DNA from: an uncultured Alphaproteobacteria bacterium
Lineage (GTDB): Bacteria > Pseudomonadota > Alphaproteobacteria > Micropepsales > Micropepsaceae
Direction: 5' to 3'
DNA length: 64,000 bases
NCBI GenBank assembly: GCA_902826695.1
Contig: CADEFU010000003.1
Span: 186,001 to 250,000 of the forward strand
The position numbers and the translations under genes are program-made. A model generated the notes under the pieces. It was not told the origin of the DNA. It worked only from the letters and a program-made list of their open reading frames with translations, and searched no databases. Shown one piece after another: positions 13,984 through 34,946 of this stretch. How positions within the stretch are numbered: position 1 is the stretch's first letter; each line of letters opens with the position of its first letter.

Positions 13984-13994
13984 GTGCAGCAAAG

Positions 13995-14340
13995 AAAGAA
14001 GATTGAACCACCAAGCACACCAAGGGCACCAAGACGCCTGTGGGCGATAGCGCACGCCGGCGTCGTGGCGACGCTGCAAGAAGATGTCTCACGCGAAGCC
14101 GCGAAGGCATGAAGTAAAGACGCGAAACACGTCCCTTTCTTCGCGCGCCGCAGGCGCGCAATCGATGGCAAGATAGGCGCTTCGCGCCTAAAGCCTGTCC
14201 CGACTTTTCGCGCCTTTACTTCATGCCTTCGCGGCTTCGCGTGAAACCCCCTTTCAGGAGCATCCGCCCAACCAACCTCGGCAAACCGGCCAGAGCCGCT
14301 TGGTGCACTTGGTGTGCTTGGTGGTTCAACCTTCTTACTT
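13995..14340. repeat. Nested imperfect inverted repeat, about 350 bp
   Basis: The non-coding stretch between the secreted protein and argS is built as nested inverted repeats. Outer arms 13995-14031 and 14301-14340 contain ACCACCAAGCACACCAAGG and its complement. Inner arms 14087-14127 and 14206-14245 match over about 40 bases with only a few mismatches (core GAAGCCGCGAAGGCATGAAG). Two short perfect hairpins sit in the middle: 14143-14159 (GCGCGCC, loop GCA) and 14174-14190 (TAGGCGC, loop TTC). No gene fits here. It resembles dispersed intergenic repeats of the CACCAAG / GCGAAG kind. Confidence 0.85.
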
Positions 14341-14390
14341 TCTGCCGCACGTGACAGACCCCGCCGCCCCACGCTAAACCCCGCCCCACC

Positions 14391-16190
14391 ATGGCAACCC
14401 TGACGCAAATCCTCACCACCCTCGCCGCCGACGCCTTCAAGGCGGAGGGGCTCGATCCCGCTTACGGCACGGTCACGACCTCCGACCGCCCGGACCTGGC
14501 GCAGTTTCAATGCAACGGCGCGCTCCCCGCCGCGAAAGCGCAAAAGCAAAACCCGAAGGCGCTCGCCGAAAAAATCGCAGCCCGCCTGAAAGCCGACCCG
14601 CGGCTGGCGAAGGTGGAGATCGCAGGCCCCGGCTTCATCAACATGGACCTCACCGACGAAGCGCTTGCCGCCCACATCGACAAGCTCCGTGACGACCCGC
14701 GCTGCGGCGTCCCCACGCGCGCCACCCCGCAAACCGTGATCATCGACTTCGGCGGCCCGAACATCGCCAAGACCATGCACGCGGGCCACCTGCGCTCGCT
14801 CGTCATCGGCGACGCGCTGCAGCGCCTGCACCGCTTCATGGGCGATAAGGTGATCAGCGACGTCCACTTCGGCGATTGGGGCCTGCAGATGGGCCAGCTG
14901 ATCACGGAGCTGAAACGCGAACAGCCGAACTTGCCCTACTTCGACGAGGCGAACAAAGGCCCGTACCCGAACCAATCCCCCGTCACGATGGAGGATCTGG
15001 AGCGCATCTACCCCAAGGCCAGCGCCGCCTGCAAAGCCGACCCTGAGCGCCTCGACGAAGCGCGCAAAGCGACGGCCGAGCTTCAGGCCGGCCGCCCCGG
15101 CTACCGCGCGCTGTGGGAACACTTTCGCGGCGTCTCCTTCGCAGGCGTGCGCCGCGAGTTCGACGCGCTCGACATCAGCTTCGACTGGTGGAAGGGCGAA
15201 AGCGACGTCGACAAGCTGGTCGCGCCCATGGTGGACGATCTGAAACGCCGCGGCCTGGCGGTCGAAAGCCAAGGCGCGCTCGTCATCCACATCGCGGAGG
15301 AGGGCGACAAACGCGAACTCCCCCCGCTGATCGTGCAAAAGAGCGACGGCGCGGCGCTGTACGAGACGACCGACCTCGCCACGATCGTGGACCGCGTGGC
15401 GAAGGCCGACCCCGACCTCATGCTCTACGTCGTCGGCCAACCCCAACACGACCACTTCGAAAAAGTCTTCCGCGGCGCCAGGAAAGCGGGCCTCGCCGGC
15501 AAAGCGACGCTCGAACACATCGGCTTCGGCACCGTCAACGGCCCCGACGGCAAACCCTTCCGCACAAGAGCGGGCGGCACGGTGAAACTCTTCGACCTGA
15601 TCGAACAAGCGAAACAAGAAGCGAGGAAGGCGCTGAGGGAACTGGCAATCGCGCGCGGCGAAAATCCACCGGAAGAACGCGACATGTCCCCCGAAGCTTT
15701 AGCGGAGGGGGAAGAGATCGCAAGACAAGTCGGCCTCGCCGCAATCAAATTCGCCGACCTGCAAAACCACCGCCTGACGAACTACGTCTTCGACCTAGCA
15801 AGGTTCACAAAATTCGAAGGCGAAACCGGCCCGTACCTCCAATACGCCGCCGTGCGGTGTAAGTCGCTGCAGCTGAAGGCGGTGCAGATGGGACACTGGC
15901 CGGACGCGATATCGCGCATCGAAAGTGACGCCGATCGGAATCTCGCGTTGACGCTCGACCGTTTGCCGGGCGCCATCGACCAAGCCACAGCCAAACGAGC
16001 GCCGAACGTCTTGTGTTCCTACGTATTCGAACTCGCACAAGCATTCAGCCGCTTTTGGGCGGCGCACAACATCGTCAACGAGCGTGACGAGGAACTGCGC
16101 GGCGCACGTCTCAGCCTGTGCGCACTAACCTTTACAGCGTTGACGCGATCACTGTCCCTTCTCGGCATCGAAGTTCCTGAGCGGATGTAG
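14391..16190 (+). CDS. argS: Arginyl-tRNA synthetase
   Basis: 599 residues. Class I aminoacyl-tRNA synthetase charging tRNA-Arg. The N-terminal tRNA-binding domain (1-110) is followed by the HIGH-type motif HAGHLRSLVIGD (130 onward) and by FGDWGLQMGQLI. The KMSKS loop is replaced by FRTRAGGTVKL, as in most ArgRS. The C-terminal helical anticodon domain ends LLGIEVPERM. Codon choice changes over the last 330 bases compared with the body, and a diverged copy of the final 50 codons lies directly downstream (16243-16395). The gene is intact, but its 3' end may have been replaced by recombination. Confidence 0.96.
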   Translation: MATLTQILTTLAADAFKAEGLDPAYGTVTTSDRPDLAQFQCNGALPAAKAQKQNPKALAEKIAARLKADPRLAKVEIAGPGFINMDLTDEALAAHIDKLRDDPRCGVPTRATPQTVIIDFGGPNIAKTMHAGHLRSLVIGDALQRLHRFMGDKVISDVHFGDWGLQMGQLITELKREQPNLPYFDEANKGPYPNQSPVTMEDLERIYPKASAACKADPERLDEARKATAELQAGRPGYRALWEHFRGVSFAGVRREFDALDISFDWWKGESDVDKLVAPMVDDLKRRGLAVESQGALVIHIAEEGDKRELPPLIVQKSDGAALYETTDLATIVDRVAKADPDLMLYVVGQPQHDHFEKVFRGARKAGLAGKATLEHIGFGTVNGPDGKPFRTRAGGTVKLFDLIEQAKQEARKALRELAIARGENPPEERDMSPEALAEGEEIARQVGLAAIKFADLQNHRLTNYVFDLARFTKFEGETGPYLQYAAVRCKSLQLKAVQMGHWPDAISRIESDADRNLALTLDRLPGAIDQATAKRAPNVLCSYVFELAQAFSRFWAAHNIVNERDEELRGARLSLCALTFTALTRSLSLLGIEVPERM

Positions 16191-16210
16191 ACGGACAGCC
16201 AAGCCTCCTG

Positions 16211-16233
16211 TCCTCCGCTTTAGCGAAGGAGGA
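16211..16233. repeat. Hairpin between argS stop and argS relic
   Basis: TCCTCCGCT followed by TT and AGCGAAGGAGGA forms a near-perfect stem. It lies exactly between the intact argS stop and the start of the diverged duplicate 3' end, so it may be an argS terminator or a junction element. Confidence 0.5.
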
Positions 16234-16242
16234 TCGACCTCA

Positions 16243-16395
16243 GCCCAGCGCTTCTCCAGCTTCTACGCCGCCCACCACATCCTAAGCGAAGAAAACGCCC
16301 CCCTCCGCGCCCGCCCAACCCTCTGCCACCTCGCCCTAACCCAACTCCAATCTACATTGACCATTCTCGGCATCGAGCCACCGGAGCGGATGTAG
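16243..16395 (+). pseudogene. Relic of a second argS 3' end
   Basis: Translated in frame with the TAG at 16393-16395, these 50 codons begin AQRFSSFYAAHHIL and end LTILGIEPPERM. They align without large gaps to the last 51 codons of the intact argS (AQAFSRFWAAHNIV ... LSLLGIEVPERM), about half of the residues being identical. The last 12 bases (GAGCGGATGTAG) are identical to the end of argS, and CTCGGCATCGA is shared just before. Upstream of it the homology stops at the hairpin. This is a genuine second argS tail, either the original end displaced by an incoming one or the remnant of an integration at the argS 3' end. Confidence 0.85.
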
Positions 16396-16411
16396 AATCT
16401 TGCGAGGGTCA

Positions 16412-16428
16412 ACACGTATTAATCGTGT
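16412..16428. repeat. Short inverted repeat at the RADAR edge
   Basis: ACACG and CGTGT are separated by the 7-base AT-rich TATTAAT. The site lies between the argS relic and the end of rdrB. It could serve as a weak terminator for rdrB or mark an island boundary. Confidence 0.35.
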
Positions 16429-16449
16429 CCCTATAGCTCGAATCAACTC

Positions 16450-18957
16450 TCACCAGACCGACGGCGGCCAGTATACGCGCTCAAGCCCGTTGCGACGGAT
16501 GCTTTCCAAAATGCCCAGCGCTTCCTCCCGCCCGATGCCTGCGTCGCAAAGTCCAACCAGCACGATCGCGTATTCATTCTCGATTCGTGTACCGAAAACA
16601 CCTGGGTTGTCGGTGTTGATCGTAGCCAGGATCTTACCCTTGTGTCGCGTCAGTAGTGGAATGATTGGAATTTCCTTCGGTTGCGTAGCGCCCGAGATAC
16701 GCCAATTTGAGGAGGGATTGAACTCGAAGAGGATGCCGCGGCTCGATAAAAGATCGACGACCTTCCCTTGCGCCCACCGGACAGCTGGGACTAGAGAATC
16801 GTAAAGCTCTGCTGGCGCGAGACGCTCGGCGCGTGCCGTGAACGTCTTCTCATCGTGCACCTCACGATCGGCGAGTCGCGCCGCGGGCGACTTTGTGTTC
16901 TCACGCCATCTCTCACCGCCTTTGCGCCACACCGGTCCCGCACGGTAGTTGCCGATGTCTTCAAGCATCATCAGGCTTGGCGGCGGTAGTGCCCCCGGAT
17001 AGAGCTCAGCAAACGTTGACCAAAGCCACTCTTCAAGCTGCACGAGTTGCGTGCCGAACTGGCTACTTCCTTCGAGCATCATCTGCGTGTAAAGCCAAAG
17101 CAGTGCGTCGAACTGCTGGCCGGCCTCCGTTACAACATGCGAGAGGCGCTCCCGGTGAAACCGCTCAACATCCACACCAGCCGCAAGGCCGTGTCCGATC
17201 GTGTCGCCTTCCCGCATCTTGAGCCCGTCAGCTGCGCGCACCATCGCATACACACCCTCCAGCGGGTGCGCGAAGTCTTCACCGGCATGGCAGGTGAGGC
17301 CGAGCGGTGGCAGGGCAACTTGGTCGGCGCGGCTCGAATCACCCATCAATTGGAGCCATCGCCCGTATGTGACGGGATCGACATCATCATACTTCAGCGC
17401 CGCCAGGGCATCTTCATCACCGCGCGCGAGGTTGATCGCGAACGCCGCGACATCGGGCGGAACGTCGCGCTCTTGACCGGCAAAATCGATGCGCGCGATG
17501 CGAGAAACAAACCGCCGGTCTTGGGTCACGGCAACCGCGCATCGAAACTCGTGTAACGCCGCCGCTTCGTCGGCAACTCTCCGTCGCAACTCCTGTACGG
17601 CTTGCGGCGTCGCCGCGCGGTTCTTCAAGTCGAGTGACCGCTTGAAATGCACCGCAAAGCGGATGTCGGCTGCTTGAGTGTGGTTGGCGAGATCGAAGTC
17701 GCGCTCAAGCGCGTCCCATGTCTTAAGCTGTTGTAGGAATGAAGAGCCTCGCGTGCCGGGCAGCGGCGCAAAACGCAGTTCCACCCGGCGCAAGGATCCA
17801 CCCTGCAACAAGTAGAGCAAGTGATCGTGCCACCGCGTTCGCACGACAGTGTGATTGACCGGAAGATTCGGAAACTCCCCCGTCCACTTCATTGTATTGA
17901 ACATCTTGCGAAACCTGTTCAAACCTGGGTTTGTGGTCACGCCCTGTGTTCGCAGCCGGATGAACCGGCTCTTTGTGTGGATGTAAACGTCGAGGGCATG
18001 CTCCAGCCAGATCGCGTTGCGCCACTTGTCGGGCTGCTCGCTCTTGAGCAATGCGTTAAGTGTCGTAAACGCGCGTACAAGCATCCTGCGCTCGCAGCGC
18101 AGGCGCTTAAGACTCCGCCAGGGATCTATTGGGTCATTCTCGGAAAGCTCGATCTTTTCGTAAAGGCGGCCAAGCATGGAGGTGGGATCAGCTATATGTT
18201 CGATGACCCAGCGCAATCGATGCCGCTCGATAGCAAGCTCAGGGCCCCGAGATTGGTCTGCTATCGACTCCATGGGCATGTTGTCGAGGTCGATCGCACC
18301 CGAAATGAGACCTTGCCACAGCGCGTGCGCATTGCGGAGTGAACCCTGATGAATGTGAAGGTCGCTGACCCCTTGCCGAGTCAGCCGCTGCAAGTCGCGG
18401 TCAGCGATCCTGGCGACGATCGGCCACTCCGTCATGCGCTCCAATGCGCGCGGCTCATACGATCGGGCGAATGTGAAGCAAAGTAGGCTGTCCGCATCCA
18501 AAAATTCCGTACAGGTTAGCCACCCGCGCAACGAGGCCAGGTCAATGACGGGTTCGTCGGTCTCGAAACGAATCTTGAGCCCGAGGCGGGCGATCAGGAC
18601 CTCAAACCAACCCATTAGCCCGTCGCTGGCGTCGTCGGCGAGCGAATGCAAAATGGTTCCAATGTCCTCACCAGCCCAGCGTCGGTCGGATTCGAGCAAC
18701 CGCTCGGCGATCAAGTTGAGGATCCTCAGCCGCTCCTTCTGATCGAAGCATTGGCCCAAGCCCCGCCACCTAGCCCCGCGCTTTCCTGCGAGCGCCGTCA
18801 GCGGATCGGCCAACGTCTCTGTTTGTGCAAGCTTTATCGCCGCTGCAATGCGCTCCTCAGAGGAAAGCACAGCCAGCGCCAATTGCCCTTGAACATCCGA
18901 CGCAGTCACGCGTTTCAGGTCACTTTGTTGTTTTTCCGGCAGATCTTTGACTGGCAA
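16450..18957 (-). CDS. rdrB: RADAR adenosine deaminase RdrB
   Basis: 835 residues from a TTG at 18957, which overlaps rdrA by 38 bases; a GTG at 18909 is an alternative. Adenosine-deaminase catalytic features are all present but spread widely: HIH at 201-203, HAGE at 557-560 (zinc His and catalytic Glu), GHG at 588-590 and NTDNPG at 781-786 (zinc Asp; the following Asp of classical ADA is Asn). The roughly 350 residues between HxH and HAGE are much longer than in metabolic ADA, as in RdrB of the RADAR system. Paired with a large P-loop ATPase, this is expected to assemble into a defence complex deaminating adenine nucleotides or RNA during phage infection. The assignment rests on motifs and gene pairing. 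Confidence 0.88.
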   Translation of the reverse strand: MPVKDLPEKQQSDLKRVTASDVQGQLALAVLSSEERIAAAIKLAQTETLADPLTALAGKRGARWRGLGQCFDQKERLRILNLIAERLLESDRRWAGEDIGTILHSLADDASDGLMGWFEVLIARLGLKIRFETDEPVIDLASLRGWLTCTEFLDADSLLCFTFARSYEPRALERMTEWPIVARIADRDLQRLTRQGVSDLHIHQGSLRNAHALWQGLISGAIDLDNMPMESIADQSRGPELAIERHRLRWVIEHIADPTSMLGRLYEKIELSENDPIDPWRSLKRLRCERRMLVRAFTTLNALLKSEQPDKWRNAIWLEHALDVYIHTKSRFIRLRTQGVTTNPGLNRFRKMFNTMKWTGEFPNLPVNHTVVRTRWHDHLLYLLQGGSLRRVELRFAPLPGTRGSSFLQQLKTWDALERDFDLANHTQAADIRFAVHFKRSLDLKNRAATPQAVQELRRRVADEAAALHEFRCAVAVTQDRRFVSRIARIDFAGQERDVPPDVAAFAINLARGDEDALAALKYDDVDPVTYGRWLQLMGDSSRADQVALPPLGLTCHAGEDFAHPLEGVYAMVRAADGLKMREGDTIGHGLAAGVDVERFHRERLSHVVTEAGQQFDALLWLYTQMMLEGSSQFGTQLVQLEEWLWSTFAELYPGALPPPSLMMLEDIGNYRAGPVWRKGGERWRENTKSPAARLADREVHDEKTFTARAERLAPAELYDSLVPAVRWAQGKVVDLLSSRGILFEFNPSSNWRISGATQPKEIPIIPLLTRHKGKILATINTDNPGVFGTRIENEYAIVLVGLCDAGIGREEALGILESIRRNGLERVYWPPSVW

Positions 18958-21900
18958 GGCGCTTATGGTGCGCGCCTGCTTTACCTTTGAGAAGGGATAG
19001 AAACTCAGCAGTTCGGATCAGCTTTTCTTCGAAGTCCGCGAACACGCTTTTCAGTTCGCGCCCGGCGCCTTCGCGCGAGTCGAGTTTGCTTACCCTGTCT
19101 TTGAACATTTTACCCCAACCCGGGGGAGCTGGTTCCCCGAGTCGCGCAAGAAAGCCTTGTGCCCCTTCCACTCCCATGGACGTGAACGAAATATCGGGAA
19201 TCATAGAGAACGACACACCGTGCAGCAGCGAAGGGCGTGGTTCCTCTCGTGGCTCTCGCGTCACCTGCGTGATTTCAAGTCGTATCAGCGTAAGTTCCAA
19301 ACTGGCGCGGTATCTGAGATAGTAGCGTGAAATCCAGCGAACAAACTCTTGCCAATTGTCAACGACGTTTGTCAGTTCACGTTTTTCTATCGCAATCCGG
19401 CGCGCCTTGTGGCAAACGGCCCCGTACTCGATGTGCACCAATGCTGGAAGGCACGGCATGAGCGCCCAAAGATAAAGGAACAGGGATTTTGAATATCGAG
19501 CCAAGTCGACATCCTGGTGGCGGCTTGGATCAATTTGCAACAAGGCCCACTTCGTAGGTGTTTTCGCCAAGGACTGGCAGCCTTTGACTGAACTCGGAAA
19601 CGCCGCGTCGAAGACGGAGTCGTCCTCCGGCCATGCTCCGTTCACATCTGGTCCAAGACCTGCAGCGTCAGCAACAAACAAACGCAAGGGCACCTTCTTC
19701 CAGACGTCCCCCGGCTGAACCTCTGTCGGGTTGCTGATCAGCTCTCGTACTACCTCTTCAAGTTTCCCGGGGAGAGGGTCCGCGGTAAGTCGTTCGAACG
19801 CTTCACGTGAGTAACCGTTTTGTTGAATCCAATGGCGCACTGCGTTGAAACTTGGGATGGTGTAGCGATTGCCCTCCCAGAACGTCGCCGTACGCTCAAA
19901 CGGCCATTTCTCACCAGCAGCCTCCCGATCTTGGTCCACCCGTTTCGGCGGCAGTTGGTTTAGCAAGATTCGCGAAGCGTGCCAGGCACGCCGCATGTCG
20001 TTGATCAACGCTTGGTAGGACTCGAAACTATCAGCCAGAACGTCATCTATTTCGCGCTGGGCGCCAGACACTGGTTCTTTAAGATGTAGCGCCTTTGTCA
20101 CAAACTTGTTCCAGCCCTCAACTGTAGTCTTTGCCAAACTGCTTGCTGCAGTCCGCCCAAGTGCCGTTTCGGCAAAGTGATTGTAGTAGTCATAGTGGCG
20201 ACGCAGCGAGTCGATTTCTGCACACTTTTCTGCAAACTCCCTACGCGTTTCGATATCGGCGAGCAGCTCACCATTCTCTACTTTGGTGGCCGGTGGAGTG
20301 AACCGCCCTATTTCGAGGCTACCAAGAGGTAGAACGACTTCCTTCAGGTACGTTGCAAGGAGTTCCTCGCTCGGCCCCGGTTTGACCTCGACTTTGCCTT
20401 TCTCAATGAGATCTGCTTGAGCCTCATGCGCGGTAGCGGCCCGGCCCTCTTTCTTTGCCGCAGTTGTCGCTTCGCCGATGCCCGCCATTGGCTGCGTCCA
20501 CAAGCGGTCCACGTCAAAGAAAAATAGCTCGGGCCATCGATAGATCAGATTTGTATCCCAATCCTTCGAGAAGCGAAGAGGCTCCCCTTGGGACTCGATC
20601 CGAAGCCCAGGCTCGAAAGCAATATCGGGAAGACAATCCAAATCGTGGAAGTAGATACAGTTCGCCGGTAACACTGAATGCTGAATCTGTTTCGCAACGC
20701 CAAACAGTGTCTGCGGTTGCATTTTCGGAAAGAACGGCGTCATACCGATCATGTTCTGTCCTGAAGGCCGCGGCAGCAATCCGATCGGGACGTTGGCGTC
20801 GGGGTCTTCCCGCAAGGGCAGGGCCAGCCCCAGATCCAACCTGAATCCGATGAAGGAATATCCGTATGTACCACGCTGAAGTGTGCGGTCGCCGATGCGG
20901 AAGTATCGCTCACCTCGCCAACAACTGTCGACGCTCTGTTGCTGCAACCATGCCCCGACATTCGTATCCGCGTCAGAGAAGCGATCGATCAAGAGATTGT
21001 TCTCTGGCGCCTCGAATAATATCACGGCCAACCGCTTCGGTCGGCGATGGGGCAAATGGCGGGACACCAAAACCGAGTTTGGCGTCGAACCTGTAAGACC
21101 GACCAGCGCACGCAATTGCCGGATCGACCGTGGCCGTAACTGCTCACCGTACCGGTGCCGGAACAGCCACCACGCAAGAAAGCTCTCCAACTTGTTCTTA
21201 TCGTCCTCCGATGCCAACTCGCGCAGGCGGAGGCGACGGTTTTGAAACGCTGCCACCTTGATGCGAAGGAAGTCGTCACGAAAGTCGGAAAGTCGCTGCC
21301 GACAATATTGATCAAAAGAGAGGCCGCCGACGAGGGTTTCAAAATCATTGAAGAACTCTTTGTCCCGCGCCCATTCCTTGTCTTTGTCACCCTTTTGGCC
21401 ATTGGAGGGGTCGCCAATCTCACTGAAGTCCGCCAACTCATCGACTGGCTCAAACGAAAGAAAAAATCGCAACGGCCGCGGCAGGATTTTTTCGAGATAC
21501 TCTTCAATTTGATGCCGAACGAGGCGACGCCACGTGGTTGGTGTGCCGCCGGTCGGGTCCGCCGAAACCTCGACAGGATCCTTCAGATCGCTCAACTGAC
21601 GCCAGGTCAAGCTTTGCCGCATCGAGCGCAAGTGACCGGCGACGATGGTCACGATGCGCGGGTGGTCCAGAAAAATGCGGATCGTATGCAGAATATCGGC
21701 GGTGGTTTGCGGCGACACATCGGTGTCATCGACAAAGGTCACCAAGAGCTGTGCTTTGAAGTAGTCCAAGTACTCGTTGACGTACGAGCGCCACATTGCA
21801 ACGCGGTTATAGGACTCGGCGCCCGTGCTTCCGAGCTTGGTCAAATAGTTCTCGAGGTTGTAGCTATACGCTCTGATGGCCTCGTCGCGCTCGCTCTTCG

Positions 21901-22675
21901 CGAGGTACCAACCTTTCGCGACTTGATCGTGCAGTTTCTGTACTAGCGCTTCGCCCTGCGTCACCCGCTCGCTATCCGTGTGCGAAGCGCTCTTGCATCG
22001 CATGATCTCGCCCTTCAATTTCGTGATCATGAGGGCAAAGAGAGCCTCCATGACCGATTGGGTTTGTTCAAGATCGGAAGGCACCAGAAGTGGCAAGACG
22101 CATGCCGTGTGTCGCTTTTCGACCCGGGGTTCATGTCCGCGATGAGGTTCCCTGAAGAGACGTTCGACGAGTCCTTTAGTATCTTCGTACGGCCAACTAT
22201 CGAATCTTGTCTTCTCACTCTTGCTTTCTGGGTTGGCTTCTTTAGCGGCATTCAGGTCTTTACGCTTCTTCTCGACTTCCTCGCTAAAGTAAGTGCGCAG
22301 GCCCTTCAGATAATTGGTAACGAAGTTCCATCGACCATCGGCCCACTTGTCCGCATCCCCGAGGCATTTCAAGAACTCTCTGATTGTGAGCAGCATCGAC
22401 GTCTTGCCGGAGCCGCGCGCGCCGTCGATGAAGAACACATGGCGTGGTCTCCGAAATTGTTGATTGTCTACGTATTCGTGGGTCGTCCGCGCCACCACGC
22501 CGAGCTGGGCTTCGCCGTCGGCAATTTCATATACGCGTAACAAGATGTCTCTTAGAACGCGATCCTGCCGCATTGTAAGTTTGTTGGTAGGCAGTACTGA
22601 GGCGCCAGTCCAGTCGATGTCGCCGAGCGGCCCGTGATCGATTGTTGTCAACGAATCCGTCTTGGTAATACCCAT
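18920..22675 (-). CDS. rdrA: RADAR ATPase RdrA
   Basis: 1251 residues. The ATG at 22675 has a GAGGAA ribosome site 6-7 bases upstream, so the longer frame starting at 22753 is not used. The Walker A motif is GARGSGKT at 85-92; Walker B is FVDDTDVSP near 314-322, followed by a sensor-like strand RIVTIVAGHL. The rest is a long, mainly helical C-terminal region with no recognised domain. In RADAR, RdrA is the ring-forming ATPase that works with the RdrB deaminase to restrict phage. The 3' end overlaps rdrB, so the two are co-translated. The protein looks longer than typical RdrA as I recall the family. Codon use is less GC-biased than in neighbouring genes, consistent with acquisition. Confidence 0.87.
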   Translation of the reverse strand: MGITKTDSLTTIDHGPLGDIDWTGASVLPTNKLTMRQDRVLRDILLRVYEIADGEAQLGVVARTTHEYVDNQQFRRPRHVFFIDGARGSGKTSMLLTIREFLKCLGDADKWADGRWNFVTNYLKGLRTYFSEEVEKKRKDLNAAKEANPESKSEKTRFDSWPYEDTKGLVERLFREPHRGHEPRVEKRHTACVLPLLVPSDLEQTQSVMEALFALMITKLKGEIMRCKSASHTDSERVTQGEALVQKLHDQVAKGWYLAKSERDEAIRAYSYNLENYLTKLGSTGAESYNRVAMWRSYVNEYLDYFKAQLLVTFVDDTDVSPQTTADILHTIRIFLDHPRIVTIVAGHLRSMRQSLTWRQLSDLKDPVEVSADPTGGTPTTWRRLVRHQIEEYLEKILPRPLRFFLSFEPVDELADFSEIGDPSNGQKGDKDKEWARDKEFFNDFETLVGGLSFDQYCRQRLSDFRDDFLRIKVAAFQNRRLRLRELASEDDKNKLESFLAWWLFRHRYGEQLRPRSIRQLRALVGLTGSTPNSVLVSRHLPHRRPKRLAVILFEAPENNLLIDRFSDADTNVGAWLQQQSVDSCWRGERYFRIGDRTLQRGTYGYSFIGFRLDLGLALPLREDPDANVPIGLLPRPSGQNMIGMTPFFPKMQPQTLFGVAKQIQHSVLPANCIYFHDLDCLPDIAFEPGLRIESQGEPLRFSKDWDTNLIYRWPELFFFDVDRLWTQPMAGIGEATTAAKKEGRAATAHEAQADLIEKGKVEVKPGPSEELLATYLKEVVLPLGSLEIGRFTPPATKVENGELLADIETRREFAEKCAEIDSLRRHYDYYNHFAETALGRTAASSLAKTTVEGWNKFVTKALHLKEPVSGAQREIDDVLADSFESYQALINDMRRAWHASRILLNQLPPKRVDQDREAAGEKWPFERTATFWEGNRYTIPSFNAVRHWIQQNGYSREAFERLTADPLPGKLEEVVRELISNPTEVQPGDVWKKVPLRLFVADAAGLGPDVNGAWPEDDSVFDAAFPSSVKGCQSLAKTPTKWALLQIDPSRHQDVDLARYSKSLFLYLWALMPCLPALVHIEYGAVCHKARRIAIEKRELTNVVDNWQEFVRWISRYYLRYRASLELTLIRLEITQVTREPREEPRPSLLHGVSFSMIPDISFTSMGVEGAQGFLARLGEPAPPGWGKMFKDRVSKLDSREGAGRELKSVFADFEEKLIRTAEFLSLLKGKAGAHHKRLASQRSAGKTTK

Positions 22676-23008
22676 CGCATTCCTCAATTGACATTTTACA
22701 GGGAACACCCACGCTAGTTGATACGCTATGTTGGCTATACTCAAGAAATTCATTCGCCCAAAGGCAGAACGAGCATTGATGACTTCTCGCGTTGAGTGTC
22801 AGGGAAGAGTTTTGCGCTGCTACATGCTGCTCTAACTTGGAGAACGATAGCTGGCGCACTTGGGAGGCTGTAAGAAGCTGAGAGAACCTTCCGCGTGGAT
22901 GGGCACGCCCGGCCTTAGTAGCGCCGATGCTTAATCCGGCCGATTGGTCAGGCGGTTGACGCTTGATTGTCGATCAAGAGGGCACAAGCATTCTGCGCTC
23001 TTTGACAT
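22676..23008. other. Intergenic region upstream of rdrA
   Basis: About 330 bases without a convincing gene, unusually AT-rich near rdrA. On the minus strand TTGAGT and TATCAA are spaced 15 bases apart some 50 bases upstream of the rdrA start, a weak promoter candidate. A perfect hairpin CTTGAT-TGTCG-ATCAAG lies at 22962-22978, just past the end of the membrane gene, without a U-run. The region may give rdrA its own promoter rather than strict co-transcription with the membrane gene. Confidence 0.4.
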
Positions 23009-23689
23009 TCAGCGGAACGGGCTCTGCGGCGCGGGAAGGTACTGTTGCGCGACAGCCCAAGTCCAATCGATCGCCAAAAAGACCAAAAACACGAAGAGGA
23101 CGCGGACATTTGCACCAGGGTGCCAAAACAAAAGCAAAGCGACCGCCGCTATTATTGCGGCGGCGACTAGCAAATCGCCCGCCTCAGCAACATTGGGCAG
23201 TTCGACCTCGCGCAAGCCTCCGATGCCGATGTTGGACGCAGTCAGAATGTAAACAACCAAAACAGCAAATGCGGCGACGTGCACAGGATAATGCAGCGCA
23301 GTGCGTCTCCAACCGAACTTGCCCGGTGCGTTCACAAAGAATGAGGTTAGACCAAATCGGCGAAAAGAGAACGCGACGACGATCAAGAGTTGAACGGCCA
23401 CTGGGATCAATTGCTCGAACGCTGGCGACAAAGGGAGTGCGATCCACGCGAGCGCCACGACAATGGTCGACTTGATGATCGCCATGACGGGCAACCAATA
23501 GTCCACAACGGTGGCGGCAAGGCCACTAAACGATAGCGCTCTCAGCACAATCGCAAAGCCACTGAGCACCAGAGGTACAGCACCAATTGCAAGAACCGCT
23601 TCCTCGCGGATAAACGCTACCCAGTCTCTCCCAAGGTCGAGAGGCGTCCGCCTCTGCACGCTTTCGTCCGTTACCTGTTTCGTGCTCAC
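23009..23689 (-). CDS. Multi-pass membrane protein next to RADAR
   Basis: 226 residues from a GTG at 23689 with a G-rich ribosome site (GGGGGGAAC). About six membrane helices are visible, for example AVLAIGAVPLVLSGFAIVL, a central pair around residues 65-110 and the C-terminal VLFVFLVFLAIDWTWAV. The N-terminal 30 residues are polar and likely cytosolic. No domain recognised. RADAR loci are known sometimes to carry a third, membrane-protein gene (SLATT or Csx27-type). This one occupies that position and orientation, so an accessory role is likely, but it lies 333 bases from rdrA and homology to either type is not evident by eye. Confidence 0.7.
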   Translation of the reverse strand: MSTKQVTDESVQRRTPLDLGRDWVAFIREEAVLAIGAVPLVLSGFAIVLRALSFSGLAATVVDYWLPVMAIIKSTIVVALAWIALPLSPAFEQLIPVAVQLLIVVAFSFRRFGLTSFFVNAPGKFGWRRTALHYPVHVAAFAVLVVYILTASNIGIGGLREVELPNVAEAGDLLVAAAIIAAVALLLFWHPGANVRVLFVFLVFLAIDWTWAVAQQYLPAPQSPFR

Positions 23690-23741
23690 GTTCCCCCCAA
23701 TTTCCTGCTATCAAACGCGGCGACCTGCATGCGGCAATCTC

Positions 23742-23855
23742 TCAGGAACCGCTGCCCTTCGTTAAGCCGATCAACAAGACCACACGAAGATGAGTGTACT
23801 GGTCCTCAATGCGCGTGCCAAACACGTTTCGGTTGTCTGTATTCGGTGTGGCTCG
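23742..23855 (-). pseudogene. Relic of a second rdrB-type C-terminus
   Basis: Reading the minus strand to the TGA at 23742-23744, the frame contains NTDNRNVFGTRIEDQY then LRVVLLIGL. Intact rdrB has NTDNPGVFGTRIENEY then AIVLVGL at its C-terminus. Twelve of the 16 residues in the first block are identical, and the block includes the zinc-binding Asp. No other part of a deaminase is visible upstream, so this is a fragment left from another rdrB-like gene or a duplication scar. It lies beyond the far end of the RADAR operon, in the same orientation as rdrB. Confidence 0.8.
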
Positions 23856-24319
23856 GGCAGCATCGCGTTCACCGAGCGCAGCGTCCTGCGGCCTTAGGGG
23901 CGATCACCTGAAGACGCGAGGCTAGCGATGACAACCGTCGAGGGAAATCGGGATGCCAAGCTCTCTGACGTGTCGCAGATAAGCGGTCATGCCACTTCGA
24001 CAGGCTTAGAGACGAAGTGTGGGACGAGATGAGATATGGGGACGCGTTACCCACTCCCTCAAGTGAACGCATGTCTTGGCGTTTGGTCTTGGGCCCGAGT
24101 CTTGGCGTTCGGTCTTGCAGATCGGTCTTGGCACTTTGTCTTGGGCTCGCGCTCGGGCGAGACGCGAATTTCGCCTACCAGGCGAGCCCGCTCCGCCCTG
24201 CGACACTTTAGTTCTCTTTTTGTTCTTGAATCTTTCGGCGTTTTCGGCGATATTCGGCGCTGATCTTCCCTATTGGTGGAAATGCGTCTGGCGCCGGTTC
24301 CGGGCGACCGGCCGCAAGC
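23856..24319. other. Non-coding right edge of the RADAR island
   Basis: About 460 bases with no supported gene. It contains the 13-bp tandem repeat described separately and, at 24236-24263, several TTTCGGCG / ATTCGGCG repeats close together. No tRNA, integrase or recognisable attachment site is seen. Confidence 0.5.
24074..24151. repeat. 13-bp tandem repeat, six units
   Basis: Six consecutive 13-base units begin TCTTGG (TCTTGC in the fourth): at 24074, 24087, 24100, 24113, 24126 and 24139. Units 1 and 3 differ by one base (TCTTGGCGTTTGG, TCTTGGCGTTCGG). The first six bases are conserved and the last seven vary. The period is not a multiple of three, so this is not a coding repeat. It has the look of iterons or protein-binding sites. 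Confidence 0.8.
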
Positions 24320-26747: not shown

Positions 26748-27752
26748 ATGATCAACCGCGACCCGGAAACGAACTTCGAAGCGCTGTGGCAGACGTTCCG
26801 CGACCGCTACCCCTTCTTCGCGCTCAGAAACGTCGACTGGCAAGAGCAGTACGAGACCTTCCGGCCACGCGTCACGCGCGCGACCGGCGACGCGGAGCTC
26901 TTCGATATCCTCTGCCAAATGCTCGAGGCGCTGAACGACGGGCACGTCGAACTCAAAGCCAGAATAGGCGAGGGCGGGACAACGCGATCCTTCACCGCCG
27001 AAAAGCAGCCCCGCTTCTATCGCGAATTCACGGACCGCGAGATCAAAGACCTCTTCAAAACGACCGAGAAAACGCTGGCCGCCCACGGCTTCGCCCGCCC
27101 GGAAGAGACAGAGGCTTGGCTGCTCCGCTACGGCCGCTCGCCAACCATCGGCTACCTGCGCATTCTCGAGCTCGAGGGTGTCGGCAAACAAAAGCTGACC
27201 GCCGCCTTGGACAAGATCGCCCAGGACTTCGCGGACCTCGAAGGCTTCATCATCGACATTCGCGACTGCCCCGGCGGCGATGATCACGTCGCGATCGCGA
27301 TCATCAACCGCTTCTGCGACGCCAAGCGAACCGCCTTCCACCGCAAGACGAAGATCGGCCCGGGCGAAGACGACTTCACACCTTTGAAGACCTGGCACAT
27401 CGAGCCTGAGGGCGACACGCAGTTCACCGGGCCGATCGTCGTCCTCAGCTGCGATTCCGTGTTCAGCGGCGGCGAGGCGTTCGCGCTGGCGATCAAGGAA
27501 CTGCCGCATGTGACGCTGATCGGCGAGCACACGAACGGCATCTTCTCCTACACGCTCGACAAAAAGCTGCCGAACGGCTGGGCGTATTGCCTGTCCTACC
27601 AAGTGTACCTGTCGGCGGACATGGTCTGCTACGAGGGCAAAGGCGTGCCGGTCGACATCGAGCTGCTGAACACGAAAGCCGATATCGAAGCCGGCGTCGA
27701 TCCGCTGATCATCCGCGCGCTCGATGTGCTGCGGTCGCCCGTTGTCTCGTGA
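26748..27752 (+). CDS. Cytosolic S41-family peptidase
   Basis: 334 residues without signal peptide. LNDGHVEL near residue 65 is the usual S41 N-terminal motif; IIDIRDCPGGDDHVAIAI forms the glycine loop; and VFSGGEAFALAIKELP holds the catalytic Ser-Gly-Gly-Glu region, followed by GEHTNGIFSYTLDKKLPNG. No PDZ domain is visible. This is the tricorn/C-terminal-processing fold in a compact version. It is better preserved than the S41 relative at 7573-9012. Substrate unknown. Its 3' end overlaps the convergent phosphopantetheinyl transferase by 44 bases. Confidence 0.86.
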   Translation: MINRDPETNFEALWQTFRDRYPFFALRNVDWQEQYETFRPRVTRATGDAELFDILCQMLEALNDGHVELKARIGEGGTTRSFTAEKQPRFYREFTDREIKDLFKTTEKTLAAHGFARPEETEAWLLRYGRSPTIGYLRILELEGVGKQKLTAALDKIAQDFADLEGFIIDIRDCPGGDDHVAIAIINRFCDAKRTAFHRKTKIGPGEDDFTPLKTWHIEPEGDTQFTGPIVVLSCDSVFSGGEAFALAIKELPHVTLIGEHTNGIFSYTLDKKLPNGWAYCLSYQVYLSADMVCYEGKGVPVDIELLNTKADIEAGVDPLIIRALDVLRSPVVS

Positions 27753-28440
27753 CGAGAGCCGCAGAGGTGTCGGCCTCCTCGATCACGTAAGCGCAAAAGC
27801 GCTGCGGCCCGCCCGGCGCCTGAACGACACGCAGCGTCGGTGTCAGCTCGAACTCGAACGCGTCAAGACCGAACGGCAATCCCTCGCCGATGGATTTCAA
27901 CGCCGCTTCCTTGAGCGTCCAAAACTGGAAGAAGGCCCGCGCATCCGCCGCTTCGATGGCCTTGGCCTCGGCTTCGCAGAAGTAGCGTCGCGCAAGCTCG
28001 CCTGTCGCCGTCGCCCGCGTTCGATCCTCGATATCGACACCGATGTCATGGGTCGAAGACCACGCCCCCAGAAAGCCGAACCGGCAGGAGGAAAAGCTGA
28101 ACGAGGTCCCCGGCACTTGCGGAAGATACGGGCGGCCTTTCTCACTCTCAGCAAAGCCGATCTGCGCCAGCGGCGCCGAAGACCCAAGCGCCAGCGCGCC
28201 GCAATAGCGGCGAAAGGCACGCTGCTGCTTGAACCGCGCCCGACGTTCCTCGGCCAAGAAGCGCTCCGCCTTCGCCAACTCGCCGGCTGACAGTACCGAC
28301 GCGCAACGCCGCGCCACCTCCGCGTCGTGCGAAACCGGCGCGAACACCACGCAAGCCGCATCACGCGCCGGTGCCGGCGTCCAATCCCGCGCGTTGGCCG
28401 CAAACCAGTCTTGAACCCAGGCGCTATCGTCTCGCGTCAT
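27709..28440 (-). CDS. Sfp-type 4'-phosphopantetheinyl transferase
   Basis: 243 residues from the ATG at 28440. Transfers phosphopantetheine from CoA to the Ser of carrier domains. The Mg/CoA motif is GVDIED (134-139) and the second signature is FWTLKEAALKSIGEG (173 onward). Length and the N-terminal pseudo-repeat fit the Sfp/EntD type rather than AcpS. The start overlaps the end of the NRPS gene by 17 bases, so it is co-translated and very likely activates that enzyme's T domain (Ser620). It is the last gene of the diaminopropionate operon. Confidence 0.93.
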   Translation of the reverse strand: MTRDDSAWVQDWFAANARDWTPAPARDAACVVFAPVSHDAEVARRCASVLSAGELAKAERFLAEERRARFKQQRAFRRYCGALALGSSAPLAQIGFAESEKGRPYLPQVPGTSFSFSSCRFGFLGAWSSTHDIGVDIEDRTRATATGELARRYFCEAEAKAIEAADARAFFQFWTLKEAALKSIGEGLPFGLDAFEFELTPTLRVVQAPGGPQRFCAYVIEEADTSAALVTRQRATAAHRARG

Positions 28441-31400
28441 CGACGGGCTCCGCCGGGCTCCCCTCATAGACGGCCCTGGAAAGGCTCATCTCCTTCAGCA
28501 CCATGGCGAGCGGCAGCAGCGTGGTATCCCGCGCGATCGTCGCCCCGCCCATCACGGTCGCGCCGACCGCAACCACGCACCCGTCATGGATATGGGTTCG
28601 CTTCACCTTCAGCGTCATATCCTCAAACGAGTGAAGCTGCAGGAAGCCGTCCACGACGCAATCGCGCCCAAAGCTGACGGCGTTCCAGTCGGAGCACTGC
28701 ATCGGCTCGGTCAGGATCGTCCGCGCGCCGATCCCGCATCCCATCCACCGCAAGATCGGGTTCGCGAGCACGGTCCCGGCGAAGAAACTGATTGGCCCCC
28801 GGCACCAGACGAAAAAGCAATCCTGTGCGAAGAAATAGGCAAAGTGCCGCCACGACCAAAACGGCGTCGTATGATCGGCCCCCCAGTCGCTTCCGACCAG
28901 CGCCTTCTTCACCGCGACGCTCAACGAGATCAACCCAGCCTCCGTAACCAGGAAAGCGGCGAACACGCCCGCAATCGGATCGAAGCCCCAGCGCGTCAGA
29001 CAAATGAAGAGAACCGCGAAGATAAGCCCTTCCGTCGCGCGCAGGATGCCGATGCTGAAGAGGTCGTTCAGGAAAACACGGGTCAGAAACAGGGCAAAGC
29101 CCGGCCGCCTGTGCGTTTCGTTCTCCGCCTCGAACGACGCGCTCGCAAACCGCACTGGCGGATTTCCCGCCGCCGTAATCGGCGCACCGAGCCGCGACCG
29201 CATCTGACGGCGAAACAGGATGTCGTTGCCCGGCGTCGAAACGCCCAGAAGGAAATTGGACGGAAGATTGCCGGACTCCGCCACACAGTTGTTACCGGCG
29301 AAGAAGTTCCGCGGCATGTCGAGCGGGCGCAGGGTCATATGCTCGGCCCCGACGTCGAGCATGTTCGTCAAGCAACCATTCGACCAGAAGATCTGAGAGT
29401 CCGCGCTCGCGGCTTCGGGCACAAGGTTGAACATGAGGTCGCATTCCGAGCCGCCCACGCGCGGGAAATGCATGCCCGCAAGCGCCCGCAAGTACTGCCC
29501 CGTGACAGTCCAGGTCCACAGCGCCTGAATGCCGTTCATCTTCGACACACGGTACAGCAGAAGCGCACCCTTGAGCCCGCGCGAAGGGATGAGCCCCGGC
29601 GACGCGGCCGTCCAGCGAATGAAAAGACAGCCGAGCAAAGACACCACCACGATGGTGAGCCAGTTGGTGATGAACGCGTAGAGCACCAGGTGCCAGACGA
29701 TCTCGGTGAGCGGCGTCGTCGCAAAGTAATCGGCGGGAATGCCGCTGCCACCGGCGACGTTGCCGCCAAGCGCCGCCTCGCCGGCCGGTATCAGGCCGCG
29801 GGCGAACCAGAAGATCGCGGCCGTGGGTACGACGGTGAGAAGGAACGACACGGCGATCTGCATCAGGATGTTGAGCGTCTCAAGCATCCAGATCGGCTGA
29901 GTATACCGGCACGCGTTCGCGGTCCGCCTCAACACCGTGGTTCGGCCGGTCAGACGGGCCGGCGCGCCCTCCCACATCTCGTGAGAGCCCGTGTCGCTGA
30001 GGATGGGCGTGAACGGCGTGATCCAGGTGCCGCGCCCCACGGTCACACTGCTCGAGACGGCCGCCCGCATACCGATCTTGCATCCGCTCTCAAGCCGAAT
30101 GGGGCCCACATGCAGATGGTGCCCCGACCACACCGCCGTTCGGACGTAGGCGCCGGTCTGGATGGCGACATCATCCTCGATCGTGAGGAGGTCGAGCGGA
30201 CCGGCGAGATAAGCATCGCTTGCGCACTGAAGGTTCCGCCCGACGCGCGCGCCCAGTTGACGCAACACGAACGCCATCAGCGGCGCGCTGCGATACATCG
30301 CGCCAAGAGAGAGAAGCACCATGCTCTCAATCCGCCCAATGCACCAAATCCGCAGATGCATGCGGCTCCACTTGGGATACACGCCCGGCGTCACGTTGTT
30401 CCGGGTGAAGTCGCCGCCCAAAAGAACGCGAGCGATCATGGCCATGAGGAGGAGCGCGAACGGCGTCACAAGGCCGAGCAGGTAAAGTGCGAAGCCGACG
30501 ACCACAAACGCCGACAGGCTTGCGGTCGCAAAAAACGTCCCGACATCGACGTAGCTGAAGACGGCGAAAGCGAGCAGAAGGGCAGGGGCGACCGACAGCG
30601 TCGCAAACAGAACCTGCAACGTGGTGAAGTAACCGACGGAGAGAACCTCCGCCGCCGCCTCATCGCGCCCGGCGCCGTTCACATCCGCTTGCCTGGCCCT
30701 CGCCGGCGCTGGGTCGGCAAGCTGAGCCCGCCGCGGCTGGCTCGCCACCTTGCGCGCCGTGTTGCAGTCGCTGAGCAACGCCCGAACCGACACCGCCCAT
30801 CCGGCGGCCTGCAGTCGTTGCGCCAGACGCGCGATCAGAATGGAATGTCCGCCGGCCTCAGTAAATCCATCGTCCAACCCAAGCGGCGTCTCGAACACCT
30901 CCCTGCAGATGCTCAGCACTTCCTCGCATTCTGGGTTCGACTCTGCGTTCCCATCCGTCGCGACGACGCGAACTTGCGCGTCGCGCACGCGTTCCGCGTC
31001 GGCCCCCAAGAGTTGAACGAGATTCGGCAATCGCTTCCGATCGATCTTCCCCGACACCGGACTCATGACGAACTTCTCGACAAGGAAGATGCTTGTCGGA
31101 ACCGACGGCTCCGGAAGCTGTGTCGCAAGGATCGCCGTCACCCGGGCCGCCCACGCCGCCGGGGCGGGTGCAACGACGGAAACATCGCCTTTGGCGATGG
31201 AAGGCGCCGCGACGAAGGCGACCAGGGCCTCGTTCTGATAGTCGAGCACCGCAGCTTCGATCTCGCCGAACTGCGTCTGAAGGATGTCCTCGACGGCCTG
31301 CGTCTCGACGCGATGCCCGCGCACTTTCAGCTGGGCATCGATCCGGCCCAGGAACTCCACGCGCTGCGCCCGAATGTCGATTCGACACCTGTCCCCGGTG

Positions 31401-32701: not shown

Positions 32702-32737
32702 AGCATCACCTCACTTGCGGGCGGAGCTTATCGCCAC

Positions 32738-33808
32738 TCAATCGAAGTATCTCTCGAGCGTACCCCGCCGGCGAATATCGGTCGTCACGCAGTGGAACCC
32801 GCCGCCCAGCAACTTCGAATGCCGCAGCTTGATGGCGATCACGTCGAGCCCCTCTTTCTCAAGCAGCTTGATGAGCGCCGTCTGGTCTCGATCGACGACG
32901 ACCAGGTTCGGATTGATGCTGAAGGCATTCATGTCGATCCAGTCGCTGCCGATGCACTTCGAGAGGTAATCGGCGTCGTACCGCCCCGTGTTCTCCATGG
33001 GCGGACTATAGATCACCTTCCACTGCTTGAGGATTGGGGGCAGCGTGTCGTCGGTCAGACGGGCGGGATTGCAGAGGATCAGGCCGGGCCGCAGCGCCAC
33101 GAAGGTCGAGTCGATGTGACTGCCGTAGTAGACGTCTTTAAGGAAATGGACGCGGAACTTCGGGCCCAGCATCGTTTGCAGCCATTGGCCGCCCATTTCG
33201 TTTCCGGTGGCGCTCACCAAATAGACCAAGTCGTTGCCGAAGCGCAAAACGTTGGCCGCATCGAAAGCCGGTTCGTCGTTTCGCGGTGTGGGCTTCTCCA
33301 AATCGACGTCGAACAGCGAGTCGAGCAGCATGGGTCTTGGCGCGCTGTACCACTTCGCGCCCGCGTTCATGTACTCGATCAGCAGCTTGCGATAGCTGAA
33401 CGACTCCTGTTGGCGGCTGCGGATGACGTTGGGCGTTTCGATGATCTGGTCGCCGATCACCAGCAAGATGTCACGGGGACAATAGTTGTAATATCCCTCG
33501 GACTCCCAGTTGATGGTCGAGAACTTGGCCTCATGCGGCCACGTCTCCGGCCGCTTGACGGTGACACCTTGTTTCTCGAGGGCACGGATGAACGTCTGCA
33601 GATCCTCTTCCGTCTCCTCGATGATTCGTTGCGGAAAAGGGCCGCGGGGAATTGCCTCCAACGCACGATCGGGAAACTCGGCAAGCTGCGTGCTTCGGTC
33701 GGGCGTTGGAAAGCGCGCGTTCAAGGGATTGCCGACGATCACTTCTTCGAGCGGATCCCATTCGTTCCAGCTCCAAACAGGTCCGGTAGATTTAACCTTG
33801 GCATCCAT
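32738..33808 (-). CDS. AGAT-type amidinotransferase
   Basis: 356 residues; the ATG at 33808 with GAGGAG upstream is chosen over a much longer frame. Family: arginine:glycine amidinotransferase. The catalytic Cys is in LGGGFHCVTTDIRRRG (Cys340), with His231 in GSHIDSTF and Asp183 in AFDAANVLRFG. Such enzymes move the amidino group from arginine to a primary amine, releasing ornithine. Set between diaminopropionate synthesis genes and the NRPS, the likely acceptor is diaminopropionate or a related amine, giving a guanidino amino acid; this is inference. It lies 36 bases upstream of the NRPS. Confidence 0.9.
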   Translation of the reverse strand: MDAKVKSTGPVWSWNEWDPLEEVIVGNPLNARFPTPDRSTQLAEFPDRALEAIPRGPFPQRIIEETEEDLQTFIRALEKQGVTVKRPETWPHEAKFSTINWESEGYYNYCPRDILLVIGDQIIETPNVIRSRQQESFSYRKLLIEYMNAGAKWYSAPRPMLLDSLFDVDLEKPTPRNDEPAFDAANVLRFGNDLVYLVSATGNEMGGQWLQTMLGPKFRVHFLKDVYYGSHIDSTFVALRPGLILCNPARLTDDTLPPILKQWKVIYSPPMENTGRYDADYLSKCIGSDWIDMNAFSINPNLVVVDRDQTALIKLLEKEGLDVIAIKLRHSKLLGGGFHCVTTDIRRRGTLERYFD

Positions 33809-33908
33809 GTCGTGTCGTCTCCTCGGGCACGTCGGTCGAGCCGATACGCGTCCCCTGCGTGCTTTGGGTGGTCGAATTTCTGATCTGTAAGCCGCCCTTG
33901 CGCGGCCG

Positions 33909-34934: not shown

Positions 34935-34946
34935 GTGATCGTTCCC

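What the first reader, a model, noticed from the sequence alone, without database searches (positions are those of the whole stretch)
16400..23689. RADAR-type anti-phage operon directly downstream of argS
A deaminase-like protein with HIH, HAGE, GHG and NTDN motifs spread over 835 residues overlaps a 1251-residue P-loop ATPase (GARGSGKT, FVDDTDVSP). That pairing is diagnostic of RADAR, an established anti-phage system. Seen here are an enlarged ATPase, altered metal-site residues (NTDN instead of NTDD) and an unrecognised membrane gene, so it may be a divergent subtype.
Basis: partly seen in the sequence, partly recalled or inferred. Interest (0 to 1): 0.85.

Follow-up and report, generated by a model that had tools for sequence, protein, structure and literature searches.

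The report
Divergent RADAR anti-phage defence operon
This is a distant but recognisable version of RADAR, a bacterial defence against viruses that spoils the cell's ATP, and its ATP-spoiling enzyme carries an unusual set of changes in conserved residues.

Summary
Two overlapping minus-strand genes, a deaminase (16450-18957) and a P-loop ATPase (18920-22675), form a RADAR rdrB/rdrA pair by sequence profiles, gene order and predicted structure. The deaminase model matches E. coli RdrB over nearly its whole length (Z 31.7, 667 residues); other deaminases match only the core (Z at most 26.2). The ATPase domain matches RdrA (Z 20.8-25.3), then nothing above 12.2. The pair falls in a small, strongly supported proteobacterial clade that scores far below NCBIfam naming cut-offs, as do three RADAR comparators outside the clade.

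Correction: the metal site is intact. The N of NTDN replaces the residue after the metal ligand; ATP-deaminating Cad1 enzymes have the same N. Two relatives share it, together with three more changes at near-invariant positions (G489R, R570Y, R586T/S/G) that the sister lineage lacks. This suggests a rebuilt substrate pocket.

The operon is convergent with argS, beside a duplicated argS tail, in a region that varies between sister genomes. The membrane gene is an orphan and its membership is unproven. New variant of a known kind.

The parts
16450..18957 (-). rdrB-like adenosine-deaminase-fold gene, 835 aa (TTG start, overlaps rdrA)
   Evidence: PADLOC RdrB 6.3e-19; NCBIfam RdrB 5.7e-28, 97.9 of 800 bits; AF2 model matches RdrB at Z 31.7 over 667 residues
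18920..22675 (-). rdrA-like AAA+ ATPase gene, 1251 aa from the ATG with a ribosome-binding site (open frame reaches 22753, 1277 aa)
   Evidence: PADLOC RdrA 1.5e-08; NCBIfam RdrA 5.3e-11, 41.7 of 600 bits; ATPase domain of the model matches RdrA at Z 20.8-25.3
18349..18357 (-). zinc ligands HIH, RdrB residues 201-203
   Evidence: H in 87 of 89 rows, gaps in the other 2
17275..17289 (-). HAGED, RdrB 557-561 (zinc ligand H557, catalytic E560)
   Evidence: H557 and E560 in 89 of 89 rows
17191..17196 (-). GH, RdrB 588-589 (zinc ligand H589)
   Evidence: H589 in 89 of 89 rows
16606..16617 (-). NTDN, RdrB 781-784: metal ligand D783 kept, D784 replaced by N
   Evidence: D783 in 88 of 88 rows with a residue; position 784 is D 83, N 4, E 1 of 88
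17491..17493 (-). R489, G in 81 of 83 rows outside the clade
17248..17250 (-). Y570, R in 82 of 83 rows outside the clade
17200..17202 (-). T586, R in 83 of 83 rows outside the clade; three residues before zinc ligand H589
22400..22423 (-). Walker A GARGSGKT, RdrA 85-92
   Evidence: G85, G88, G90 and K91 in 38 of 38 aligned rows with a residue
21710..21736 (-). Walker B region FVDDTDVSP, RdrA 314-322
   Evidence: D316, D317, D319 in 39 of 39 rows
21632..21634 (-). sensor-1 position: H348, where E. coli RdrA has D253
   Evidence: D in 26 of 39 rows, N in L015; E. coli D253 from PMC9994260
23009..23689 (-). orphan membrane-protein ORF, 226 aa, 333 nt upstream of the rdrA ATG; membership unproven
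   Evidence: no family hit, no trusted relative, no similarity to hydrophobic ORFs near other RADAR pairs
16243..16395 (+). degenerate second argS 3' end, a mark of insertion or exchange at the argS end
   Evidence: tblastn 55% over 51 residues; shared by sister genomes G007 and G002

Best explanation
A horizontally acquired, probably working RADAR system of a divergent proteobacterial lineage. RdrA is a AAA+ ATPase (in known RADAR a seven-membered ring) that is thought to sense infection and docks on RdrB. RdrB is a deaminase (in known RADAR a hollow twelve-membered shell) that turns ATP and dATP into ITP and dITP, which limits phage replication. Shown here: homology, gene pairing, intact frames, conserved catalytic residues, shared fold including the RdrB parts outside the deaminase core, clade placement, and the co-occurring changes. 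Inferred from studied RADAR systems: assembly, ATP/dATP deamination, phage defence. Inferred with less certainty: D784N with G489R, R570Y and R586T reshapes the substrate pocket without killing the enzyme.
For: Profiles; tandem pair with overlap as in 7 of 7 plasmid relatives; RdrB model Z 31.7 to RdrB over 667 residues against at most 26.2 over 307-379 residues for all other deaminases listed; RdrA model Z 20.8-25.3 to RdrA, next 12.2, and the first 20 Foldseek hits all RdrA; zinc and catalytic residues kept; RdrB clade support 100 with RdrA of L015 the nearest ATPase too; low-GC stretch in a variable interval after argS; ATP/dATP deamination in E. coli RADAR (PMC9994260); N at the 784 position in ATP-deaminating Cad1 (PMC12669630; 9c67 sequence).
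Against: Scores are far below NCBIfam cut-offs and identity to other RADAR proteins is about 15-23%. D296N severely impairs mouse ADA (cited in PMC12669630). RdrA's sensor-1 Asp is His and its C-terminal part could not be modelled. No test of activity or defence was possible.
Confidence: 0.8

Rival explanations
1. A RADAR-derived pair whose deaminase has lost catalysis (D784N) and now only binds nucleotides or signals.
For: The mouse ADA D296N mutant is severely impaired (Sideraki 1996, as cited in PMC12669630); three further near-invariant residues changed.
Against: All zinc ligands, the catalytic Glu and the metal Asp are kept; Cad1 enzymes with the same N convert ATP to ITP; the trio keeps intact frames at about 30% identity, which argues for selection on function.
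Confidence: 0.12
2. The membrane ORF is a third, essential RADAR component (an effector or anchor), making this a three-gene subtype.
For: Same strand and inside the same low-GC stretch. RADAR subtypes with Csx27 or SLATT partners are described (PMC7699616). A crude screen finds a hydrophobic ORF within 900 nt of 17 of 75 RADAR pairs.
Against: No similarity to any of those ORFs (best E 0.1), no family hit, 333 nt gap to the rdrA ATG. The screen found none near clade members L015 or L017, and none is seen beside rdrAB in L163 from G726. Several of the 17 are plainly unrelated genes.
Confidence: 0.2
3. A metabolic adenosine deaminase next to an unrelated ATPase.
For: Pfam A_deaminase matches residues 732-799 (35.1 bits, cut-off 27).
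Against: RdrB outscores adenosine deaminase models (97.9 against 34.7 bits, which is far under that model's 216.55 cut-off); structure and gene pairing.
Confidence: 0.01

Closest known systems
RADAR rdrAB of E. coli, C. rodentium and S. suis (PMC9994260; PDB 8fnv, 8fnw, 8fnt, 8fnu, 8hr7, 8hr8)
   Same: Tandem rdrA-rdrB; four zinc His, catalytic Glu and metal Asp; RdrB fold nearly full length; RdrA ATPase domain with Walker A and B.
   Different: N for D at 784 with G489R, R570Y, R586T; larger RdrA (1251 aa against 947 aa for E. coli RdrA); H at the sensor-1 position; scores far under NCBIfam cut-offs.
Cad1 / CARF-fused adenosine deaminase of type III CRISPR systems (PMC11645235, PMC12669630; PDB 9c67, 9mmw, 8z3k)
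   Same: ADA-fold ATP-to-ITP deaminase in antiviral defence; N at the same place (NTDN in 9c67); Gly at the mouse-ADA D19 position, as our G205.
   Different: Cad1 has a CARF domain, is activated by cyclic oligoadenylate and forms hexamers; ours has no CARF hit and is paired with RdrA. G205 is common in RdrB (23 of 89), so it is no special link.
RADAR with Csx27 (rdrABC) or SLATT (rdrABCD) partners (PMC7699616)
   Same: A membrane-protein gene lies next to rdrAB.
   Different: Our membrane protein matches no model and no neighbour of other RADAR pairs.

Membership tests
RADAR (rdrAB) | rdrA and rdrB encoded in tandem | tested here: met
   rdrA ends at 18920 inside the start of rdrB at 18957; same order in 7 of 7 plasmid relatives
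RADAR (rdrAB) | RdrB: zinc His tetrad and catalytic Glu | tested here: met
   H201, H203, H557, H589, E560 aligned with the family
RADAR (rdrAB) | RdrB: RADAR-specific parts outside the deaminase core | tested here: met
   667-670 residues aligned with RdrB at Z 31.6-31.7; other deaminases 307-379 residues. Individual interface residues were not checked
RADAR (rdrAB) | RdrA: AAA+ domain of the RdrA type with Walker A and Walker B | tested here: met
RADAR (rdrAB) | RdrA: sensor-1 Asp | tested here: not met
   H348 here; but only 26 of 39 aligned RdrAs have D, so it does not define the family
RADAR (rdrAB) | RdrA: helical C-terminal lobe | tested here: inconclusive
   mostly helical but low-confidence model
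RADAR (rdrAB) | ATP/dATP deamination, supramolecular complex, phage defence | not testable with these tools
   needs experiment
NCBIfam RdrB (NF041744) and RdrA (NF041743) equivalogs | score above the curated cut-off | tested here: not met
   97.9 of 800 and 41.7 of 600 bits; three RADAR comparators outside the clade also fail for RdrB (161-170 bits), so this limits the name, not RADAR membership
Cad1 (CARF-ADA) | N-terminal CARF domain | tested here: not met
   PADLOC CARF_ADA matches only its deaminase part (735-818 to 488-573 of 605); Pfam finds A_deaminase only
Metabolic adenosine deaminase | score above the aden_deam cut-off; deaminase core without RADAR parts | tested here: not met
   34.7 of 216.55 bits; 835 aa aligned nearly full length with RdrB
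RADAR with Csx27 or SLATT partner | Csx27- or SLATT-type membrane gene | tested here: inconclusive
   no PADLOC, Pfam or NCBIfam hit for the membrane ORF; a divergent relative is not excluded

The most novel reading that the evidence does not exclude
The three-member subclade (this locus, Rhodovulum sp. PH10 and a Thiotrichales MAG) is a biochemically distinct RADAR type. Two conserved arginines and the aspartate next to the metal ligand were lost together and one arginine gained, so its RdrB may prefer another adenine nucleotide, or ATP over dATP, and its large RdrA with an altered sensor 1 may be triggered or timed differently. The D-to-N step would be convergent with Cad1.
Probability: 0.3. 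Interest if true: 0.6.

Novelty: new variant of a known kind. Interest (0 to 1): 0.42.

Why it matters
It extends RADAR into a clade that standard models score weakly, and suggests that the deaminase pocket can be rebuilt while the catalytic residues stay. A clean sister group (L016, L017, L019) keeps the usual residues, so swapping four residues between the two groups would test directly what sets RdrB's substrate choice. The neighbouring argS-to-gcvT interval looks like a place where defence-type genes turn over.

Tried and rejected
Metabolic ADA plus unrelated ATPase: rejected. QatA: only weak (E 0.0016, 0.013), and no Qat hit among the other neighbours scanned. An ATP-specificity story built on TaqCad1 alone was weakened: E. 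coli RdrB already acts on ATP and dATP with no significant activity on AMP or adenosine (PMC9994260), and its sequence has D at that place (alignment); TaqCad1's double reversion raised but did not restore adenosine deamination. G205 looked Cad1-like but is common (23 of 89). An apparent shared right flank in G007 is an interspersed repeat (5 matches in the own genome), so no orthologous right border is claimed. Viral-contig scans with RdrB, the membrane protein and the clade alignment gave no confirmed relative. The membrane ORF: no match in plasmids; in 398 genomes of the phylum only itself and one 50-residue match through stop codons at E 7.9e-4. Megablast of 16191-24319 against plasmids: none. 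Promoter and terminator scans were at or below chance. Distances in the RdrB model could not be measured, as no coordinates reach the script box; that R489, Y570 and T586 lie near the active site rests on position relative to motifs only. The RdrA model beyond the ATPase domain was too poor to use.

Rows left out: the tree used 85 of 89 RdrBs (L004, L032, L042, L057 dropped as partial or suspected near-duplicates); the tree used 28 of 89 and removed 9 columns; A3 used 48 RdrBs and A4 39 RdrAs, without plasmid records. The co-occurring changes were picked after the fact by scanning all positions conserved in 85% or more of the other rows; positions 574, 616, 618 and 829 also differ in the trio but less cleanly, and 199, 440 and 492 differ in all six clade members.

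Full report
WHAT IS THERE. Two long minus-strand frames overlap by 38 nt: an 835-aa deaminase (16450-18957) and an ATPase (18920-22753, or from the ATG at 22675 with the better ribosome-binding site, 1251 aa). argS (14391-16190) runs toward them, so the pair is convergent with argS. In 1-kb windows the stretch 16-24 kb has 53-60% GC against 61-67% on either side.

IDENTITY BY SEQUENCE. The deaminase's best matches are RdrB in PADLOC (6.3e-19) and NCBIfam (5.7e-28, 97.9 bits); the ATPase's are RdrA (1.5e-08; 5.3e-11, 41.7 bits). Both lie far below NCBIfam's cut-offs of 800 and 600 bits. That alone does not exclude them: the RdrBs of comparators L007, L010 and L040 score 161-170 bits and those of the other five clade members 102-147. 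A tblastn of plasmids found 7 records, all with an ATPase gene directly before the deaminase gene; aligned with ours they keep Walker A and B and the deaminase residues. A profile of 48 RdrBs finds solved RdrB at 2e-103, and one of 39 RdrAs finds solved RdrA at 7e-45.

IDENTITY BY STRUCTURE. The RdrB model (pLDDT 81.5, pTM 0.89) aligns with E. coli RdrB and the RdrA-RdrB complex at Z 31.6-31.7, rmsd 3.2-3.5, over 667-670 residues; the Cad1, ADA2, ADA and AMP-deaminase rows reach Z 21.8-26.2 over 307-379 residues. So the parts of RdrB outside the deaminase core are shared. The RdrA model (residues 1-1200 of 1251) is good only in its ATPase domain (mean pLDDT 53.3); there the first 20 Foldseek hits are all RdrA (E 5.8e-7 or better; next 0.055), and VIA-align gives Z 20.8-25.3 for seven RdrA entries against 12.2 for the next, BrxC.

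RELATIVES. Five stand apart by near full-length matches at 4e-47 to 5e-80: L014 Thiotrichales, L015 Rhodovulum sp. PH10, L016 Magnetococcales, L017 Rhodospirillaceae, L019 Chromatiaceae; the next best is 2e-28. With the window they form one clade (SH-aLRT 100 with 85 rows; 100/100 with 28 rows and the changed columns removed). Window, L015 and L014 group at 98 and 97/94. One search warns that the long branches of L015 and the window meet; flags no long branch and keeps the join. For RdrA, L015 is by far the nearest (34.6% over 651 residues, E 4e-95), then L016 and L017; the rdrA of L014 and most of that of L019 lie beyond their contig ends. A profile of the six RdrBs found, in 398 genomes of the phylum, at full length only the window, G547 (near-identical coordinates to L016, so probably the same genome) and one further member, G726 (E 2e-158); in 385 genomes of the class, the window alone at that level, the rest being weaker RdrB-like or ADA matches. 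Viral contigs gave none. The lineage looks rare and scattered.

THE NTDN MOTIF. It is not: the zinc histidines H201, H203, H557, H589, the catalytic E560 and the metal ligand D783 are invariant in all rows with a residue there. The changed residue is the next one, 784, equivalent to mouse ADA D296. N occurs there in 4 of 88 rows: window, L014, L015, and separately L018. D296N severely impairs mouse ADA (Sideraki 1996, as cited in PMC12669630; section 8 and passages read). Yet TaqCad1 has this N, contacts ATP there and converts ATP to ITP, and the Cad1 of 9c67 reads NTDN as well (passages of PMC11645235 read). So N is compatible with ATP deamination. E. coli RdrB, with D, is also triphosphate-selective (PMC9994260 section 13 read), so the change need not create ATP selectivity.

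CO-OCCURRING CHANGES. Scanning positions conserved in 85% or more of the 83 rows outside the clade, three others change in the same trio and not in L016, L017, L019: G489 to R (81 of 83 G outside), R570 to Y (82 of 83 R), R586 to T, S or G (83 of 83 R). G726 keeps R570, R586 and D784; its position 489 was not checked. R586 sits three residues before the zinc ligand H589 and R570 follows the HAGED motif, so a shared effect on the pocket is plausible but was not measured. In RdrA the sensor-1 Asp of E. coli (D253) is H348 here and N in L015; it is D in 26 of 39. Large RdrAs occur in the window (1251) and L015 (1396) but not in L017 (855), and elsewhere in L061 (1298) and L072 (1186), so size is not a clade mark.

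MECHANISM. Shown in studied RADAR (PMC9994260, sections read): RdrA heptamers dock over RdrB dodecamers; RdrB deaminates ATP and dATP; inosine nucleotides accumulate on infection, limiting phage replication. I infer the same here. How infection is sensed is not known.

THE MEMBRANE GENE. The 226-aa ORF at 23009-23689 has seven hydrophobic stretches by a crude rule and no relative that I could trust. RADAR subtypes with Csx27 or SLATT partners are described (PMC7699616, passages read). A crude screen finds a hydrophobic ORF near 17 of 75 pairs, some plainly unrelated, none similar to this one. Membership is open.

SURROUNDINGS. Directly after argS lies a second, degenerate argS 3' end (55% identical over 51 residues). 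Sister genome G007 (ArgS 93% identical) has the same tail, then a different cassette: a weakly phosphoribosyltransferase-like gene and a phosphorylase-superfamily gene that PADLOC files as an effector (8e-25). G002 also has a tail, then a NUDIX gene and two membrane-type genes. gcvT lies 0.4-1.4 kb after argS in G001, G003, G011 and G014, but 22.9 kb away here and 23.9 kb in G002; in G007 it is on another contig. So RADAR sits in an insertion-prone interval of this subgroup. I did not search for an integrase.

LITERATURE. Searches with RADAR+rdrA+rdrB (4 papers), with SLATT (2), with subtype (3) and with hotspot and argS (10 of 150 listed) show no paper whose title or opening abstract describes this lineage or its NTDN signature; of the listed reviews only passages of PMC7699616 were read. 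The held library lacks most subscription journals and all bioRxiv preprints, so this is weak evidence of absence.

VERDICT. RADAR confirmed; a divergent lineage with an unusual, clade-specific signature at conserved deaminase positions; ordinary in principle, worth one biochemical comparison.

Noticed in passing
27709-35915: Possible gene cluster for a diaminopropionate-containing product: SbnA (372.3 of 349.95 bits) and SbnB (386.1 of 326.9) both above NCBIfam cut-offs, a 1425-aa AMP-binding/carrier protein with a Pls/PosA-type terminal region (145 of 423.1 bits, below cut-off), a phosphopantetheinyl transferase and a weakly arginine-deiminase-like gene, all on the minus strand. The architecture recalls poly-amino-acid synthetases such as epsilon-poly-lysine synthetase (recalled, not tested).
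   Followed up: partly
16191-39084: The interval between argS and gcvT is 22.9 kb here and 23.9 kb in G002 but only 0.4-1.4 kb in four other genomes of the family; it holds RADAR and the cluster above.
   Followed up: partly
L116:1491-5907 (G007): In sister genome G007 a different cassette follows the same argS tail: a phosphoribosyltransferase-like gene and a phosphorylase-superfamily gene that PADLOC files as an effector (8e-25). It could be an undescribed defence system.
   Followed up: partly
24199-24297: Interspersed repeat near the right end of the low-GC stretch; matches in G000 (5), G007 (7), G002 (12) and G008 (5), none in G001 or G003.
   Followed up: partly
13986-14345: About 360-bp imperfect palindrome (71.7% self-match on the opposite strand) just before argS.
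   Followed up: no
24073-24143: Four copies of a 19-nt repeat (GTCTTGGCGTTTGGTCTTG type), spaced 26, 13 and 13 nt, in the low-GC stretch.
   Followed up: no
L018:7954-10707: A Vallitalea RdrB outside the clade reads SDNP, an independent D-to-N change, but keeps the arginine before the last zinc histidine.
   Followed up: no
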